NCBI RefSeq assembly: GCF_900104065.1
Contig: NZ_FNLC01000001.1
Location: 248,001 to 312,000 of the forward strand
Length of the DNA: 64,000 nt
Direction: 5' to 3'
Source: Natronobacterium texcoconense
GTDB lineage: Archaea; Halobacteriota; Halobacteria; Halobacteriales; Natrialbaceae
Positions within the stretch are counted from its first letter, which is position 1; every line of letters begins with the position of its first letter. Under the pieces are notes generated by a model. It was not told the origin of the DNA, ran no database searches, and saw only the letters and a program-made list of their open reading frames with translations. Of the stretch, positions 47,017 through 54,310 are shown piece by piece. Both the position numbers and the translations under genes were made by a program.

Positions 47017-49995
47017 TTACTCGTCGTCGCTCGTTTCGGTAGTCGTCTGGTCCTCGGCTGTTTCTCGGTCGATCGCTTCGTCAGCCGTCTCGAGGGCTGT
47101 TTCGTCGCCGTCAGCCGTCTCATCGGCTGTCGTCCCGCTATCATCGCTGTCGTCTTCGGGTGTCTCGTCGGCAGTTTCGTCACCGTCGGATGCCTCACCA
47201 TCGACCGTCTCGGAATCGCCCCCGTCATCGTCGACTGTCTTGGTGTCGTTCTCGTCGTCGCGGGTCTCGAGGCCGGCATCACCGCCGGCCGCCTCAGCGC
47301 CAGCGTCCTCGAGGTCCTCTTCCTCGCCCCCCTCGGAATCGATTTCGACGTCGGTGTGTTCGTCGTCTCCGCCTTCGTTCGACGGCTCGAGGCCGGTTTC
47401 GTCGGTCGCCGTCTCTGGGATATCCTCCTCGGTCGACGTCTCGATGTAGGCCTCGTCGTCGAGTGTCTCGACGTCGGCTTCTTCGTCGGTCGTCTCGCCA
47501 TCGTTGCCGTCGATATCGGTCTCGTCGTGTCTGAGCACGATCCCGGCCTCCTCCGGATCGGAGTCGGTGTCTACGTCCTCGGCGTCGACCTCGAACTCGT
47601 CGAGCGAGTCCCGGAGGTCGTCGGCCCGCTCGGTCAGCGAGTTCGCGCCGGAGGCGACTTCTGAGATGGTGGCGGTCTGTTCCTCGACGGCGGCCGCGAC
47701 GGTTTCGGTCTCGTCTTTGGTGTCTTCGCTGATGGTGGTCGCTTCGTCGACCATGTTGACGACGCGTTCGCTCGCCCGAGCCTGGTCGTCAGTCGCGTCG
47801 TTGATCGACTGGATGCTCTCGTTTGCCGTCTCGACCTGTGCTGCGATCTCGTCGATGGCCTCGATCCCTTCGCCGATCACTTCGCTTCCCTCGTCGACGC
47901 GCTCGCGCATCTGCTCGATCTCGTCGACCGTCTCGTCGACCGACGACTGGACTTCCGTGATCAGTTCGTCGACCTCCTGGGTCGCGTCGGCCGTCTCCTC
48001 GGCGAGTGACTTCACCTCGTCGGCGACGACGGCGAACCCGCTTCCGTCTCCACCGGCCGCAGCCGCCTCGATCGAGGCGTTCAGTGCCAGCAGGTTCGTC
48101 TGACCGGCGATGTCGTCGATGAGGTCGACGACGTCGCTGATCTCGCCCATCTCGTCGTCTAACCGCTGGATCTGGTCCGTGATCTCGTCGGCCTGGCGCT
48201 CGAGGGCGTTCATCTGGGTGCGGATCGCACTGGCCGCATCCCCTGCAACGTCCGCGCGGTCCGCGGCTTCGCCCGAAACCGCCGCGACGTCGTCGGCGGT
48301 CGAGGCGATCTCCTCGACGGTCGCCGAGAGGTCGTTCATCTCGCTGTAGACCTCCTGGAACCGGTCGCTCTGGTTGGCCGTCGCCGTCGCGATCTCCTCG
48401 GTCGAGTGGCTCACTTCGTCGCCCGCGCGTTCGATCTCTTGGACGCGGTGGGTGACGTCCGCACTGATCCCGTCGACGTCCTCCGCCAGTTGCTGGATGT
48501 CGACGATCGTCCGTTCGAGGTCCTCGAGCATTGCGTTGAACGCCGCTGCAATCTCCGAGAGTGCCTCGTTGTCGACGTCTTCGTCCAGCCGCTGGGTGAA
48601 GTCACCCTCGGCAGCCTGGGACATGACGCCGGCAAACTCCGCTGCCTTTCGCTCGAGTCGGTCGGCGAGTTGTTCGGCTTCACGGCGTGCCTCGGCCGCC
48701 TCCTCCTGAGCGGTTTCGGCATCTGCCTTGGACTGCTCTAAGTCCTCGATGGACCGCTCGAGGTCGCGGTGCATCGTCTCGAGCGAATCGCCGAGTTTTC
48801 CGGGAACGTCCTCCTCGAGGACGGACGAGTCGAACTCCTGTTCCGCGATCGCATCGGCCTGATCTGCCGCCGTCTCGAGGTACGCCTGGATGTCGGCGAA
48901 CGAGTCTCGAACCTGTCCGACCTCGTCGATTCGATCGTCGTCGGGAATCTCGACGTTCGTCGAGCCGTTCGAGAGGGTGGCCGCGTTGTCGGCGAGGTCG
49001 TCGAGCGCGTTGGCCGTCGAGCGCCCAATCGTCGCGCCGACGAACAGCAGACTACCGACCGCGATACCGCCAAGCAAGATCAACGCGACCGCGACGTCGT
49101 CGGCGAGTTCGTATACGTCGTCCTGGGGTGCATGCGAGACGAGTATCCAGTTCGTGTGCGGGACGTTGGCCCAGGCGACGACTTCGTCCGTGTCGCTGTA
49201 ATCGAGTGCGCCGGCGTCGTCCGAGGCGTCTTCTCTGGCCTCGAGCACTTCGCTGTCGACGCCGTCACGGTACTCCGTCAGTACCTGCGTCTCGTCGTGG
49301 GTCGCCATGATCTCGCCGGTTTCGATGTGGACGATTTCGGTCTCTGCCCCTTCGATTGGTTCGTCGAACGTATCCGCGAGGTCGGTCGCGGTGACCGTGA
49401 TCATCACGCCACCGGAGACGTCCTCGTCGTCGACGGTACTTATGAGTGCGACGACCTCTTCGGCGTCGTCGCCGCTGCCGAACTCGAACGTATTCGTAAA
49501 CGTCGAATCGACGCTCATGTGTCCGTCGTACGTGTACGAGATCCGGTTGCCACCGATCTCGCTATCACTGTGGTACTCCATATCGAACGCCGAGATATCT
49601 TTTCCGACGGCGTCGTCGGTCGTACTGTACATAATCTGGTTGGAGTCCATATCGAAGTAGTGGACCCCGTGATACGCGTTGAACTCCCCGTCCTCTTCGT
49701 CCAGTCTCGACTGAATCTCTTCGTCGTCGCCCTCGATCAGTTCGTTACTGGCCGAAACCGTCGCCGCTACCTGTTCGTTCGTCTGAATCCAGTCACTGAG
49801 TTCGTCCGCCCGGTCGTCCGTCGCGAACGCCATCTCGTTCTGGGCGTTCGCACTGACTTCGCCCGTGATTCCGACGTAGAAAAACAGGGCGGTTGCGACG
49901 GTGATGACCAGCGTAATCCCGATAACTAGCCCGAACTTGGCGACGTAGCTCCGCCGAATGCGAGTAGGTAACACCTTCCCCGACCGGAATGTCAT
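47017..49995 (-). CDS. Haloarchaeal transducer (methyl-accepting chemotaxis protein) with long acidic tail
   Basis: The 992-residue Htr protein has TM1 (about 20-42), an extracellular Cache-type sensor (about 45-300), TM2 (about 302-326), HAMP (about 327-385), a linker and a signalling coiled coil (about 470-795) with the hairpin core [22 protein letters not shown]. After [14 protein letters not shown] comes a roughly 190-residue Asp/Glu/Thr tail that the paralogue at 51599 lacks. Ligand unknown. ATG 49995 is chosen since [21 protein letters not shown] matches family starts; an 11-bp motif shared with the paralogue lies 32 nt upstream. Confidence 0.92.
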
Positions 49996-50026
49996 TTCTA
50001 TAAACAGATACCTAGTGCGTGAAAGT

Positions 50027-50037
50027 GCTTGTGGCCC
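50027..50037 (-). promoter_or_regulatory. Shared upstream motif of the transducer gene at 47017
   Basis: On the coding strand, GGGCCACAAGC ends 31 nt before the start codon and is followed by an ACTTTCAC TATA-like run. The same 11 bases occur at the identical position upstream of the paralogue (54300-54310). The position covers the BRE and the activator-binding zone of a leaderless promoter. Confidence 0.5.
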
Positions 50038-50221
50038 AACTGGTCGACAACTAGTGTGAACGGTCGTCGTATTTATCGCATTATTTGCCACTTAATCGGC
50101 ACCGAATCCGATCGAGGGCATCGATCTGTGAACTCGAGTGTCGGCGTCGGCCGAGGCATTCGCCGGCTTGCCGAAAGGATCAATTCCCGACGGAACCGAA
50201 TAGGGAGTGCTACACACACTC

Positions 50222-51487
50222 ATGGATGGCTTGACTCGTAGCTCGATCCGTCTCAGTCGTGGCGATACGGCTTACGTCGTCGGCATCGTCTCCGGCGCAC
50301 ACTTCCTGTCTCACGTCTATTTACTCGCGTATCCGCCGCTTTTCCCGCTGATCGGTGCCGAGTTCGATCTCACGACGACCCAGCTCGGGTTGCTCGTGAC
50401 CGCAATCTACCTGCCGACGCTCGTCTTGCAGCTCCCGCTCGGGGAACTCGTCGATCGGATCGGGGCGAAACGCATCCTCGCCGCCGGACTCGTCGTCACC
50501 TCGCTCGGAGTCTCACTGTCCGGGCTGGCGACCTCCTACTGGACGTTGCTCGCGCTCGCGTTCGTCTCCGGGATCGGCCAGTCGGTCTTTCACCCCGCCG
50601 ACTACGCGCTGCTCGAGAGCGTGACGGATTCGACCAATCAGGGATCGGCGTTCGGCCTGCACACGTTCGGCGGCTTCGCCGGTTTCGCCGCCGCACCGAT
50701 CGTAACGGGAACGATCGGCGTTCGAGTCGGCTGGCAGGCCGCCCTACTCGTGGTCGGTTCGCTCGGCTTCGTCTACGCGGCTATCGTCCTCCTAACGACC
50801 GAGTCGGTCTATCGACGACAGATTCGCGACTCGAGCCCGGACGCTGGCGTCGCCGTCTCCGGGGCGGCCGCCGACGTCAAGAAGACGGTCACCGATCTCC
50901 TGGGGCTGTTCCGGTCGGAACTGCTCGTCGTCTTCTCGTTTTACCTCGTCTCGATGATGGCCATCGTCGCCTTCCAGTCGTTCACGACCGTGTTCGCGGT
51001 CGAATCGCTCGAGTTCGCCGAGTCGACGGCCAACAACGTATTGACCGCCTACCTCGTCGGGACGGCGGTCGGCGTCGTCGCTGGCGGCCCGCTCGCGGAC
51101 CGCGTCCCGTTCCAGCCCGTCATCGTCGCTTCCTTCACCGTCGCGGCCGTCGGCGTCTGGTTTGCCGTCGGTATGGCATCCGACGCTGGATTCGTCCTCG
51201 CAGCGTCGATCTTCGGCGTGGTCGGACTGGCGACCGGTCTGGCGCTTCCCGCTCGGGACAAACTCGCGAACTCGTTTGCCGCTGCGGGATCGACCGGAAA
51301 GAGCTTCGGTTTCTTCTTCACCGGGCTCTCGCTCGGTGCGGTGATCAGTCCGGTCCTGATCGGTGCGATCATCGACGCACGCTCCGTTGTCGCCGCCTTG
51401 CTCGTCGCCGGCGGTTTCCTCGTCGTCGCGGCATCGATCGTCGTCGCCGTTCGCCTGCTCGAGTTGCCACGGACGAACGCTGGATAG
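50222..51487 (+). CDS. MFS transporter
   Basis: The 421-residue protein has 12 predicted membrane helices in two halves, with the MFS A-motif as GELVDRIGAKRIL between TM2 and TM3 and a related GGPLADRVPFQP in the second half. The N-terminus VVGIVSGAHFLSHVYLLAYPPLFPLIGAEF and GIGQSVFHPADYALL resemble the fosmidomycin-resistance/nitrate-type MFS branch. Substrate unknown. It lies between the two transducer genes but on the opposite strand, so the sensed compound might be its substrate; that is speculation. Confidence 0.88.
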   Translation: MDGLTRSSIRLSRGDTAYVVGIVSGAHFLSHVYLLAYPPLFPLIGAEFDLTTTQLGLLVTAIYLPTLVLQLPLGELVDRIGAKRILAAGLVVTSLGVSLSGLATSYWTLLALAFVSGIGQSVFHPADYALLESVTDSTNQGSAFGLHTFGGFAGFAAAPIVTGTIGVRVGWQAALLVVGSLGFVYAAIVLLTTESVYRRQIRDSSPDAGVAVSGAAADVKKTVTDLLGLFRSELLVVFSFYLVSMMAIVAFQSFTTVFAVESLEFAESTANNVLTAYLVGTAVGVVAGGPLADRVPFQPVIVASFTVAAVGVWFAVGMASDAGFVLAASIFGVVGLATGLALPARDKLANSFAAAGSTGKSFGFFFTGLSLGAVISPVLIGAIIDARSVVAALLVAGGFLVVAASIVVAVRLLELPRTNAG

Positions 51488-51598
51488 CTCTCGCATACGA
51501 TCGTCCGAAACTGTAGCGTACGATACACAGCTACGTCACGGAACGCCCCGAGAAGAGAAGTCGTGGCTCCGATTTGATTCGCTCGAACCGTTTTTTCG

Positions 51599-54268
51599 TT
51601 ACTCGTCGTTCGCGGTTTCGATATCGGTTTCGTCGTGTCTGAGGACGATGTCGGATTCGTCCGAGGCGGAGTCGTCGTCTACGGTCTCGGCGTCGACCTC
51701 GAACTCGTCGAGCGAGTCCCGGAGGTCGTCGGCTCGCTCGGTCAGCGAGTTCGCACCGGAGGCGACTTCGGAGATGGTGGCGGTCTGTTCCTCGACGGCG
51801 GCCGCGACGGTCTCGGTCTCGTCTTTGGTGTCTTCGCTGATGGTGGTCGCCTCGTCGACCATGTTGACGACGCGTTCGCTCGCCCGAGCCTGGTCGTCAG
51901 TCGCGTCGTTGATCGACTGGATGCTCTCGTTTGCCGTCTCGACCTGTGCTGCGATCTCGTCGATGGCCTCGATCCCTTCGCCGATCACTTCGCTTCCCTC
52001 GTCGACGCGCTCGCGCATCTGCTCGATCTCGTCGACCGTCTCGTCGACCGACGCCTGCACTTCCGTGATCAGTTCGTCGACCTCCTGAGTCGCATCACCG
52101 GTCTCCTCGGCGAGGGACTTGACCTCGTCCGCGACGACGGCGAAGCCATCACCCTCCTCGCCGGCCGCAGCCGCCTCGATCGAAGCGTTCAGCGCCAGCA
52201 GGTTCGTCTGACCGGCGATGTCGTCGATCAGATCGACGATCTCGCTAATTTCGTCCATCTCGTCGTCCAGCCGTTCGACCTGGTCAGTGATCGCGTCGGC
52301 CTGGTTCTCGAGGGCGTTCATCTGGGTACGAATCGCGCTGGCCGCATCGCCCGCGATGTCGGCTCTCCCGGCAGCCTCTTCCGAAACGTTTGCGACGTCG
52401 TCGGCGGTCGAAGCGATCTCCTCGATGGTCGCCGAGAGGTCGTTCATCTCGCCGTAGACCTCCTGGAACCGGTCGCTCTGGTCGGCGGTCGCCGTCGCGA
52501 TCTCCTCGGTCGAGTGGCTCACCTCGTCGCTTGCGCGTTCGATCTCCTGAACGCGGTGGGTAACGTCCGAACTGATGTCGTCGACGTCACTTGCCAGTTC
52601 CTGGATGTCGACGACCGTCCGTTCGAGATCCTCGAGCATTGCGTTGAACGCCGCTGCAATCTCCGAGAGCGCCTCGTTGTCGACGTCCTCGTCGAGTCGC
52701 TGGGTGAAATCTCCCTCGGAAGCATCGGCCATGACGTCGGCGAACTCGGCTGCCTTCCGCTCGAGTCGATCGGCGAGTTGTTCGGCTTCCTGCCGTGCTT
52801 CGGCGGCCTCTTCCTGTGCAACCTCGGCTTCGGCTTTGGATTCCTCGAGGTTCTCGATAGACTGCTCGAGGTCGTGGTGCATCGTCTCGAGCGAGTCGCC
52901 GAGCTTTCCGGGGACCTCCTCCTCGAGAATTGCCGAGTCGAACTCCTGGCCAGCGATCGCGTCGGCCTGATCTGCCGCCGTCTCGAGGTATTCGCGGATG
53001 CCCTCGAAGGAGCGTCTGACCTGGCCGACCTCGTCGATACGGTCGTCGTCAGAGATTTCGATGTCGGTATCGCCGGCCGAGAGGGAGCGAGCGTCCTCGG
53101 CGAGGTCGTCTATGGCGTTTGCGGTCGAGCGCCCGATCGTTGCGCCGATGGCGACGAAGCCGGCGAGAGCGATGGTGATCAGGACGATCAGCGAGGTAGC
53201 GACGTCGTCGGCGAGTTCGTACGCGGTGTCCTGTGGCGCGTGGGTGACGAGTACCCAGTCGGTGCCCGGAACGTACGCATAGCCGACGACCTCGTCGGTG
53301 TCGTCGTACTCCGTCGCGTCGACTGCGTCGGTTCCCATGACGCGTGCGGCGTGGACGACTTCGCCGTCCGCCCCGGTCTGGTAGGTAGACAGGACTTCGT
53401 CTGGCTCATCGGCAATCATCACTTCGCCGTCGTCGGCGTCGACGACCTGCGTGTAACTTCCTTCGATCGTATCTTCGAACTGATCGGCCAGATCGGTCGC
53501 GGAGACGACAACCATCACCGCGTTCTCCCGATCGGTTCCCTCGACCGGACTCATGAAGGCGATAAGCTGGTCACCGCCGTGTTCGAAGGTATCGGTGTAG
53601 GTCGAATCGACGTTCAGGTCGCCTGTGTAGTCGTATTCTCGAATGTCGTCGTCGGAGAGGCGGGCGTGAAGTTCGAGATCCAGTTCACCGATATCGTCAC
53701 CGGCGACCGATTGATCCGTCGTGTGGATTATCCGGTCGGTCGTGAGATCGACGTGGTGGATTGCGTGAACGGCGTCGTCCATCTCCTCCTGTTCGTCACG
53801 TAACGTCCGTTCTATCTCTACTTCCGATCCGTCCGTAAGGACCTCGTTCGCTGCAACCAGTGTCGTCATCTGCTCGTAGTCTTCGACCCAGTCCGAGAGG
53901 CCGTCGGCTTCCGCGTCGGCGTTCATCGACATCTCGTTTTGGACGTTCGCCGTGATCTGGCCCGTAATATCGACGTAGAAAAACACTGCCGCAGCCGAAG
54001 TAATGAGGAGAACGACGAGCATCACGGCTGCAAACTTTCGCATGTAGCTCTTGCGGACGTACTCCATCGATAACGAGTCGGATTCCCGGACGTACTCCGT
54101 CGGCGAGACGCCGATCGGGTTTCGAACGTGTTCTGTCGGTAGCCGGCTACCCACTTTACGAACGTATTTCGTCGGTAGCAACCCCTTCAACTTACGAATG
54201 CGTTCCGTCGGGACCGAATCAGTCACCTTACGGACATACTTTGTGGGGAGGAGATCACGTATCGACAT
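51599..54268 (-). CDS. Haloarchaeal transducer (methyl-accepting chemotaxis protein) with N-terminal tandem repeats
   Basis: The 889-residue Htr protein is a paralogue of the one at 47017. Residues 8-67 hold five 12-residue repeats of type PTKYVRKVxxxL plus a sixth degenerate copy, all before TM1 (about 78-98, VMLVVLLITSAAAVFFYVDI). A Cache-type sensor, TM2 (about 360-380), HAMP and a signalling coiled coil with [22 protein letters not shown] follow. The C-terminus ends soon after [11 protein letters not shown] with a short acidic tail ([16 protein letters not shown]). The signalling part is nearly identical in DNA to the paralogue. Start ATG 54268 is supported by the shared upstream motif. 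Confidence 0.91.
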   Translation of the reverse strand: MSIRDLLPTKYVRKVTDSVPTERIRKLKGLLPTKYVRKVGSRLPTEHVRNPIGVSPTEYVRESDSLSMEYVRKSYMRKFAAVMLVVLLITSAAAVFFYVDITGQITANVQNEMSMNADAEADGLSDWVEDYEQMTTLVAANEVLTDGSEVEIERTLRDEQEEMDDAVHAIHHVDLTTDRIIHTTDQSVAGDDIGELDLELHARLSDDDIREYDYTGDLNVDSTYTDTFEHGGDQLIAFMSPVEGTDRENAVMVVVSATDLADQFEDTIEGSYTQVVDADDGEVMIADEPDEVLSTYQTGADGEVVHAARVMGTDAVDATEYDDTDEVVGYAYVPGTDWVLVTHAPQDTAYELADDVATSLIVLITIALAGFVAIGATIGRSTANAIDDLAEDARSLSAGDTDIEISDDDRIDEVGQVRRSFEGIREYLETAADQADAIAGQEFDSAILEEEVPGKLGDSLETMHHDLEQSIENLEESKAEAEVAQEEAAEARQEAEQLADRLERKAAEFADVMADASEGDFTQRLDEDVDNEALSEIAAAFNAMLEDLERTVVDIQELASDVDDISSDVTHRVQEIERASDEVSHSTEEIATATADQSDRFQEVYGEMNDLSATIEEIASTADDVANVSEEAAGRADIAGDAASAIRTQMNALENQADAITDQVERLDDEMDEISEIVDLIDDIAGQTNLLALNASIEAAAAGEEGDGFAVVADEVKSLAEETGDATQEVDELITEVQASVDETVDEIEQMRERVDEGSEVIGEGIEAIDEIAAQVETANESIQSINDATDDQARASERVVNMVDEATTISEDTKDETETVAAAVEEQTATISEVASGANSLTERADDLRDSLDEFEVDAETVDDDSASDESDIVLRHDETDIETANDE
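54068..54247 (-). repeat. Coding tandem repeat, 36-bp unit, in the second transducer
   Basis: Five consecutive 12-codon units encode PTKYVRKVTDSV, PTERIRKLKGLL, PTKYVRKVGSRL, PTEHVRNPIGVS and PTEYVRESDSLS; a partial sixth (MEYVRKSYMRKF) leads into TM1. Units keep PT-x-x-V/I-R and vary elsewhere, so the array is not freshly amplified. The paralogue has only one equivalent unit ([13 protein letters not shown]). Confidence 0.8.
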
Positions 54269-54299: not shown

Positions 54300-54310
54300 G
54301 CTTGTGGCCC
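54300..54310 (-). promoter_or_regulatory. Shared upstream motif of the transducer gene at 51599
   Basis: Coding-strand GGGCCACAAGC, 32 nt upstream of ATG 54268 and followed by GATTTTAC (TATA-like). It is identical in sequence and distance to the motif at 50027-50037, whereas the flanking bases differ. Confidence 0.5.

What the first reader, a model, noticed from the sequence alone, without database searches (positions are those of the whole stretch)
54068..54247. Cytoplasmic tandem repeat (12-residue unit) ahead of TM1 in a chemotaxis transducer
Five units of PTxxVRKxxxxL precede the first membrane helix, where Htr proteins normally have one short basic segment; the paralogue here has exactly one. 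The expansion lengthens a positively charged cytoplasmic N-terminus by about 60 residues. It could tune membrane insertion, clustering or binding to another signalling protein. I know of no described counterpart.
Basis: partly seen in the sequence, partly recalled or inferred. Interest (0 to 1): 0.65.

Follow-up and report, generated by a model that had tools for sequence, protein, structure and literature searches.

The report
Repeated membrane-edge motif in archaeal chemoreceptor
A salt-loving archaeon's chemical sensor carries extra, partly conserved copies of the short charged motif that normally sits once just inside the membrane; the copy number differs between sister species and similar arrays arose separately in other sensors, but what they do has not been tested.

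Summary
The 889-aa transducer (window 51599-54268, minus strand) has five 12-residue PTxx[V/I]R units at residues 8-67 (54068-54247), followed in near-register by the ordinary juxtamembrane segment SMEYVRKSYMRKF and TM1. The array is far beyond chance. The same-genus syntenic orthologue shares both ends of the tail but lacks exactly three units (105 nt, in frame), so unit number varies. Three other transducers (two genomes, probably Natrarchaeobius) carry arrays of 10-13-residue period at separate places in the tree. The single unit is common to haloarchaeal transducers, including the solved NpHtrII. Among the five copies the PTxxVR core is kept at protein level, while the rest of each unit and core third positions have drifted to near chance. 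Best reading: recurrent in-frame multiplication of the juxtamembrane anchor, giving a long, flexible, modestly basic tail that probably makes extra contacts with the inner membrane surface. Function is inferred. It is a new variant of a known kind, of modest interest.

The parts
51599..54268 (-). Transducer (Htr/MCP) CDS, 889 aa, ATG directly after an in-frame TAA
   Evidence: HAMP and MCPsignal domains by Pfam; in-frame TAA immediately upstream of the ATG
54212..54247 (-). Repeat unit 1, PTKYVRKVTDSV (aa 8-19)
54176..54211 (-). Repeat unit 2, PTERIRKLKGLL (aa 20-31)
54140..54175 (-). Repeat unit 3, PTKYVRKVGSRL (aa 32-43); absent from the same-genus orthologue
54104..54139 (-). Repeat unit 4, PTEHVRNPIGVS (aa 44-55); absent from the same-genus orthologue
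54068..54103 (-). Repeat unit 5, PTEYVRESDSLS (aa 56-67), absent from the same-genus orthologue; its first 18 nt are 15/18 identical to the juxtamembrane unit, with a 12-nt exact shared word GGAGTACGTCCG
54032..54070 (-). Juxtamembrane unit SMEYVRKSYMRKF (aa 67-79), the conserved single copy of the family (S, Y, K and F invariant in a 19-sequence alignment)
53966..54031 (-). TM1 (about aa 80-101), part of a continuous predicted helix aa 64-139
53222..53965 (-). Extracytoplasmic sensor, double-Cache fold (about aa 102-349)
   Evidence: Foldseek hits to CtaA, PctA, Mlp24/37 and other dCache domains
52982..53137 (-). HAMP domain (aa 378-429)
51839..52324 (-). MCP signalling domain (aa 649-810)
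54302..54310 (-). Promoter-type box GGGCCACAA, starting 42 nt before the ATG; the same spacing occurs in 17 other transducers
47017..49995 (-). Paralogous transducer with a single juxtamembrane unit ([21 protein letters not shown]); its GGGCCACAA box at 50029-50037 is also 42 nt before its ATG

Best explanation
This is an in-frame tandem multiplication of the transducer's own juxtamembrane cytoplasmic motif. SHOWN: haloarchaeal transducers normally start about 20 residues before TM1 and carry one L-P-x-x-[IV]-R-x-S-Y-x-x-K-F type segment; here an upstream tail carries five more copies of its P-T-x-x-[VI]-R half, the copy number differs between sister species by whole units, and comparable arrays sit at separate places in the tree. 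INFERRED: each unit is a short Pro-started amphipathic/basic element which, like the parent segment next to TM1, lies at the cytoplasmic membrane surface with its Val/Ile-Arg(-Lys) facing the anionic archaeal lipid headgroups. The array would then act as a flexible multivalent tail that reinforces N-in topology and tethers the N-terminus along the membrane in the receptor dimer. Signalling itself would be unaffected or only mildly tuned.
For: The array is far beyond chance. Unit 5 and the juxtamembrane unit share 15/18 nt and a 12-nt exact word. The orthologue lacks exactly 105 nt = 12+12+11 codons between conserved ends. Among units 1-5 the core codons are conserved mostly at positions 1/2 (0.73, 0.93) and much less at position 3 (0.45, chance 0.36), while the second half of the unit is near chance (0.33, 0.42, 0.28); p=0.003 for the planned core/tail split, 0.035 for the best of all circular splits, 0.013 for the codon-position contrast. 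So the core looks kept by protein-level selection, and recent slippage would not explain it. Units have a higher helical hydrophobic moment than permuted units (0.48 vs 0.31, p=0.005). Three other transducers have arrays of period 10, 11 and 13; with the window gene they occupy four separate places on the tree, forced by well-supported branches. The single unit occurs in NpHtrII (RLLLPSRVRHSYTGKM).
Against: Invariant Pro and Thr are more specific than lipid binding needs. Units 4-5 carry no net positive charge. AlphaFold2 gives no confident structure for aa 1-60 (pLDDT about 41-47; 31 sequences, few of which cover the tail). Only one orthologue with the same tail is available, and the selection test rests on five short copies. 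Insertion in one lineage cannot be told from loss in the other with two sequences.
Confidence: 0.5

Rival explanations
1. Neutral length variation: slippage or unequal crossing-over multiplied a juxtamembrane segment in a tolerant N-terminal tail, and the array has no function.
For: Array size differs between close relatives; arrays are sporadic and lineage-specific; AlphaFold predicts no structure; many relatives have non-repetitive tails of 40-75 residues.
Against: The PTxxVR core is conserved at codon positions 1/2 while the rest of the unit and core third positions are near saturation, which neutral copies would not show; moments exceed permuted units. Statistics are modest because only five units exist.
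Confidence: 0.27
2. Multivalent docking array: PTxx[VI]R is a short linear motif that binds a cytoplasmic partner (array component, localisation factor or modifying enzyme).
For: Exact invariance of P, T and R in five diverged copies suits a specific ligand motif; several copies would give avidity.
Against: The same P-x-x-[IV]-R segment is present once in the juxtamembrane position of nearly every related transducer, where membrane-edge packing explains it; no other gene in the genome carries the array or a relative of it; arrays in other species use a different core (VPDxVRK).
Confidence: 0.17
3. The array is not translated: initiation is at Met68 (MEYVRKSYMRKF).
For: An in-frame ATG is present there and gives a 12-residue tail.
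Against: The GGGCCACAA-42 nt-ATG geometry points to 54268, as in 17 other transducers including short-tailed ones; the orthologue's promoter and first codons align; core conservation is at protein level; the usual tail is about 20 residues, not 12.
Confidence: 0.04
4. The 36-nt period is a DNA-level element (repeated regulator-binding sites) that happens to lie in the coding region.
For: Direct repeats lie just downstream of the promoter.
Against: DNA copies are only 42-64% identical, third codon positions are near chance, and conservation follows codon positions.
Confidence: 0.02

Closest known systems
Haloarchaeal dCache-type Htr transducers (MCP family, PF00672 + PF00015)
   Same: TM1, double-Cache sensor, TM2, HAMP and MCP signalling domain; juxtamembrane [IV]R-x-S-Y-x-x-K-F
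   Different: Five extra upstream copies of half of the juxtamembrane unit; 79 residues before TM1 instead of about 20
NpHtrII, sensory rhodopsin II transducer (PDB 2F93, 2F95, 5JJE)
   Same: One copy of the juxtamembrane motif, RLLLPSRVRHSYTGKM, before TM1
   Different: No array; no dCache sensor
Three related transducers with N-terminal arrays: L122 (46-residue tail) and L048 (the gene with the 55-residue tail), both genome G040, and L019 (42-residue tail, genome G039)
   Same: Tandem multiplication of the P-x-x-[IV]-R segment ahead of TM1
   Different: Periods 10, 13 and 11; core VPDxVRK / VPDRIR rather than PTxxVRK; fewer copies; not clustered with the window gene in the tree
Same-genus syntenic orthologue (G080, L039 4278-7016)
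   Same: 72% identity from the juxtamembrane segment through the sensor, same upstream neighbour genes, same promoter block, same tail ends
   Different: 44-residue tail: three units (35 aa) fewer; its two remaining upstream units are degenerate

Membership tests
Haloarchaeal methyl-accepting transducer (Htr) | MCP signalling domain above the Pfam cut-off | tested here: met
   PF00015 145 bits against a 34.6 cut-off
Haloarchaeal methyl-accepting transducer (Htr) | HAMP domain following TM2 | tested here: met
   PF00672 27.6 bits, cut-off 25, aa 378-429; helix 351-397
Haloarchaeal methyl-accepting transducer (Htr) | Extracytoplasmic sensor of dCache type (subtype feature) | tested here: met
   Foldseek hits to dCache chemoreceptor domains, E about 1e-8
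Haloarchaeal methyl-accepting transducer (Htr) | Taxis signalling through CheA | not testable with these tools
   needs genetics
Juxtamembrane tandem-repeat transducers (grouping proposed here) | Several copies of the P-x-x(-x)-[IV]-R segment ahead of TM1 at a 10-13 residue period, beyond shuffles | tested here: met
   window gene p<=5e-5; L122 p<=5e-5, L019 6.5e-4, L048 8.5e-4; the G080 orthologue on its own p=0.79
Juxtamembrane tandem-repeat transducers (grouping proposed here) | Single evolutionary origin | tested here: not met
   four changes needed and forced by supported branches; so a recurrent feature, not a family

The most novel reading that the evidence does not exclude
The PTxxVR array is a multivalent cytoplasmic docking or membrane-wetting tail that has evolved repeatedly in haloarchaeal chemoreceptors to control receptor clustering or localisation, with strength set by unit number, as a form of receptor tuning from the non-signalling end of the protein.
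Probability: 0.15. Interest if true: 0.6.

Novelty: new variant of a known kind. Interest (0 to 1): 0.36.

Why it matters
The short cytoplasmic segment before TM1 of chemoreceptors is normally treated as a passive topology signal. Here it has been multiplied several times independently, with a conserved core, and sister species offer a natural pair differing by exactly three units. That makes it directly testable whether this end of the receptor influences insertion, array formation or sensitivity. The 42-nt promoter spacing also gives a practical way to fix true starts of these genes.

Tried and rejected
(1) The DNA pattern for the PTxx[VI]R pair at 36-nt spacing across 392 genomes of the order found this transducer array only in the window gene. 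(2) A VPD-type pattern tied to SYxxKF was too strict and missed both the window gene and L122; it is not used. (3) A 46-aa search with the L122 tail found only itself plus weak chance-level hits. (4) The genome-contig scan with the single protein found nothing; with the alignment it named relatives. (5) No PDB relative of the array. (6) Literature searches for repeats in the N-terminus of transducers found no description; the library holds open-licence papers only. (7) Considered and rejected: an untranslated repeat, and DNA-level binding sites.

Full report
OBSERVATION. The minus-strand ORF 51599-54268 encodes an 889-aa transducer with HAMP and MCP signalling domains. Residues 8-67 are five 12-residue units beginning P-T, exactly at 54068-54247. 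Self-similarity at lags 12 and 24 (72 and 75) exceeds the maximum of 20,000 shuffles over all lags (34). P, T and R are invariant and position 5 is V or I; the terminal L is loose. The following juxtamembrane segment S67-F79 (SMEYVRKSYMRKF) is a sixth, degenerate copy at 11-residue spacing; over the first 18 nt it matches unit 5 at 15 positions and shares a 12-nt exact word.

IS IT TRANSLATED? The ORF's first codon follows an in-frame TAA. A box [GT]GGCCACAA lies exactly 42 nt before an in-frame ATG in 18 of 59 related transducers, including the window gene (ATG at 54268) and its paralogue; four more have the box at 44-49 nt. Some of the 18 are close species pairs, so the number of independent cases is lower. 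In the window's genome this box-plus-spacing occurs only upstream of these two genes (2 hits; the reversed control pattern also gives 2, so the count alone is not significant; it is the positions that matter). The downstream Met68 has no such geometry. Conservation among units follows codon positions.

ORTHOLOGUE. Genome G080 (same genus) has a syntenic orthologue: 72% identity over the aligned juxtamembrane-to-sensor region, with the same two neighbours on the upstream side. DNA alignment shows a shared promoter block, a shared start (ATGTCGA), shared unit 1 and the beginning of unit 2, then a clean in-frame gap of 105 nt, then the shared juxtamembrane segment. 35 codons = 12+12+11, i.e. three whole units. 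Two sequences cannot say whether the window lineage gained or G080 lost them.

SURVEY. In 125 distinct transducer N-termini found in fetched loci (mostly from the window's family), the nearest in-frame ATG is 20 or 21 residues before TM1 in 77. Of the 44 with an ATG at 24 or more residues upstream, four have tandem self-similarity at p<=0.002: the window gene (period 12), L019 (11), L048 (13) and L122 (10); refined p values 5e-5, 6.5e-4, 8.5e-4 and 5e-5. L122 is plain to the eye: KLDSIRKAIS-VPDPVKKAVS-VPDAVRNVVS-VPDAIRKSYLRQF. On a tree of 55 sensors the four lie apart: four changes, all forced by supported branches (quick method, and L122 sits on a long branch). Searches over about 390 genomes of the order found the PT-type transducer array nowhere else and no further relative of the L122 array; these searches are narrow, so further arrays of other sequence may exist.

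SELECTION. Among units 1-5, the six core codons agree at 0.73/0.93/0.45 (positions 1/2/3) and the other six at 0.33/0.42/0.28, with chance about 0.37/0.29/0.36. The copies are therefore old enough to have lost similarity outside the core and nearly so at core third positions, yet the PTxx[VI]R core is kept. Five copies make this suggestive, not conclusive (p 0.003 planned split, 0.035 best of all circular splits, 0.013 codon position).

STRUCTURE. AlphaFold2 (31 sequences) gives a confident continuous helix 64-139 (juxtamembrane, TM1, first sensor helix), a double-Cache sensor and TM2; aa 1-60 are low confidence. Foldseek matches dCache domains of CtaA, PctA and Mlp24/37. A hand-made family consensus of the single unit plus TM1 finds, weakly (E 0.05-0.2) but in register, NpHtrII RLLLPSRVRHSYTGKM, so the unit is general to haloarchaeal transducers.

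MECHANISM. I infer that the units are extra copies of a membrane-edge anchor: Pro start, amphipathic, Val/Ile-Arg. Support is the origin from the juxtamembrane segment, the helical moments and core conservation. Against it are the neutral or acidic units 4-5 and the exactness of P and T, which leaves room for a protein-docking motif. Neutral length variation remains a serious rival.

ORGANISM. The species (possibly N. texcoconense) is my guess and not shown. G040 is tied in the same way to Natrarchaeobius chitinivorans AArcht7; G039 is in the same genus group (g13), so probably Natrarchaeobius.

Noticed in passing
54302-54310 and 50029-50037 (minus strand); also L012, L013, L107, L108, L048, L021, L022, L023, L111, L025, L114, L029 and others: A [GT]GGCCACAA box exactly 42 nt upstream of the ATG is shared by 18 of 59 related transducers across several genera; it looks like a common promoter or regulator site for a subset of transducers.
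   Followed up: partly
L122 1041-1178 (G040:C3:218040-218177): An independent, very regular 10-residue tandem array (VPDxVRKxVS) ahead of TM1 in another transducer.
   Followed up: yes
L019, L021, L023, L048, L111, L113 (genus group g13): Most transducers of this clade have 39-75 residue N-terminal tails, some with faint 11-13 residue periodicity; tail lengthening seems old there.
   Followed up: partly
47017-54268: Two paralogous transducers in the same orientation flank an MFS-type transporter ORF on the opposite strand (50207-51487; identity judged from sequence only), which may be linked to what they sense.
   Followed up: no
47017-47550: The paralogue ends in a long acidic D/E/T-rich C-terminal tail with tandem repeats (TRF 47424-47497), which the repeat-bearing transducer lacks.
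   Followed up: no
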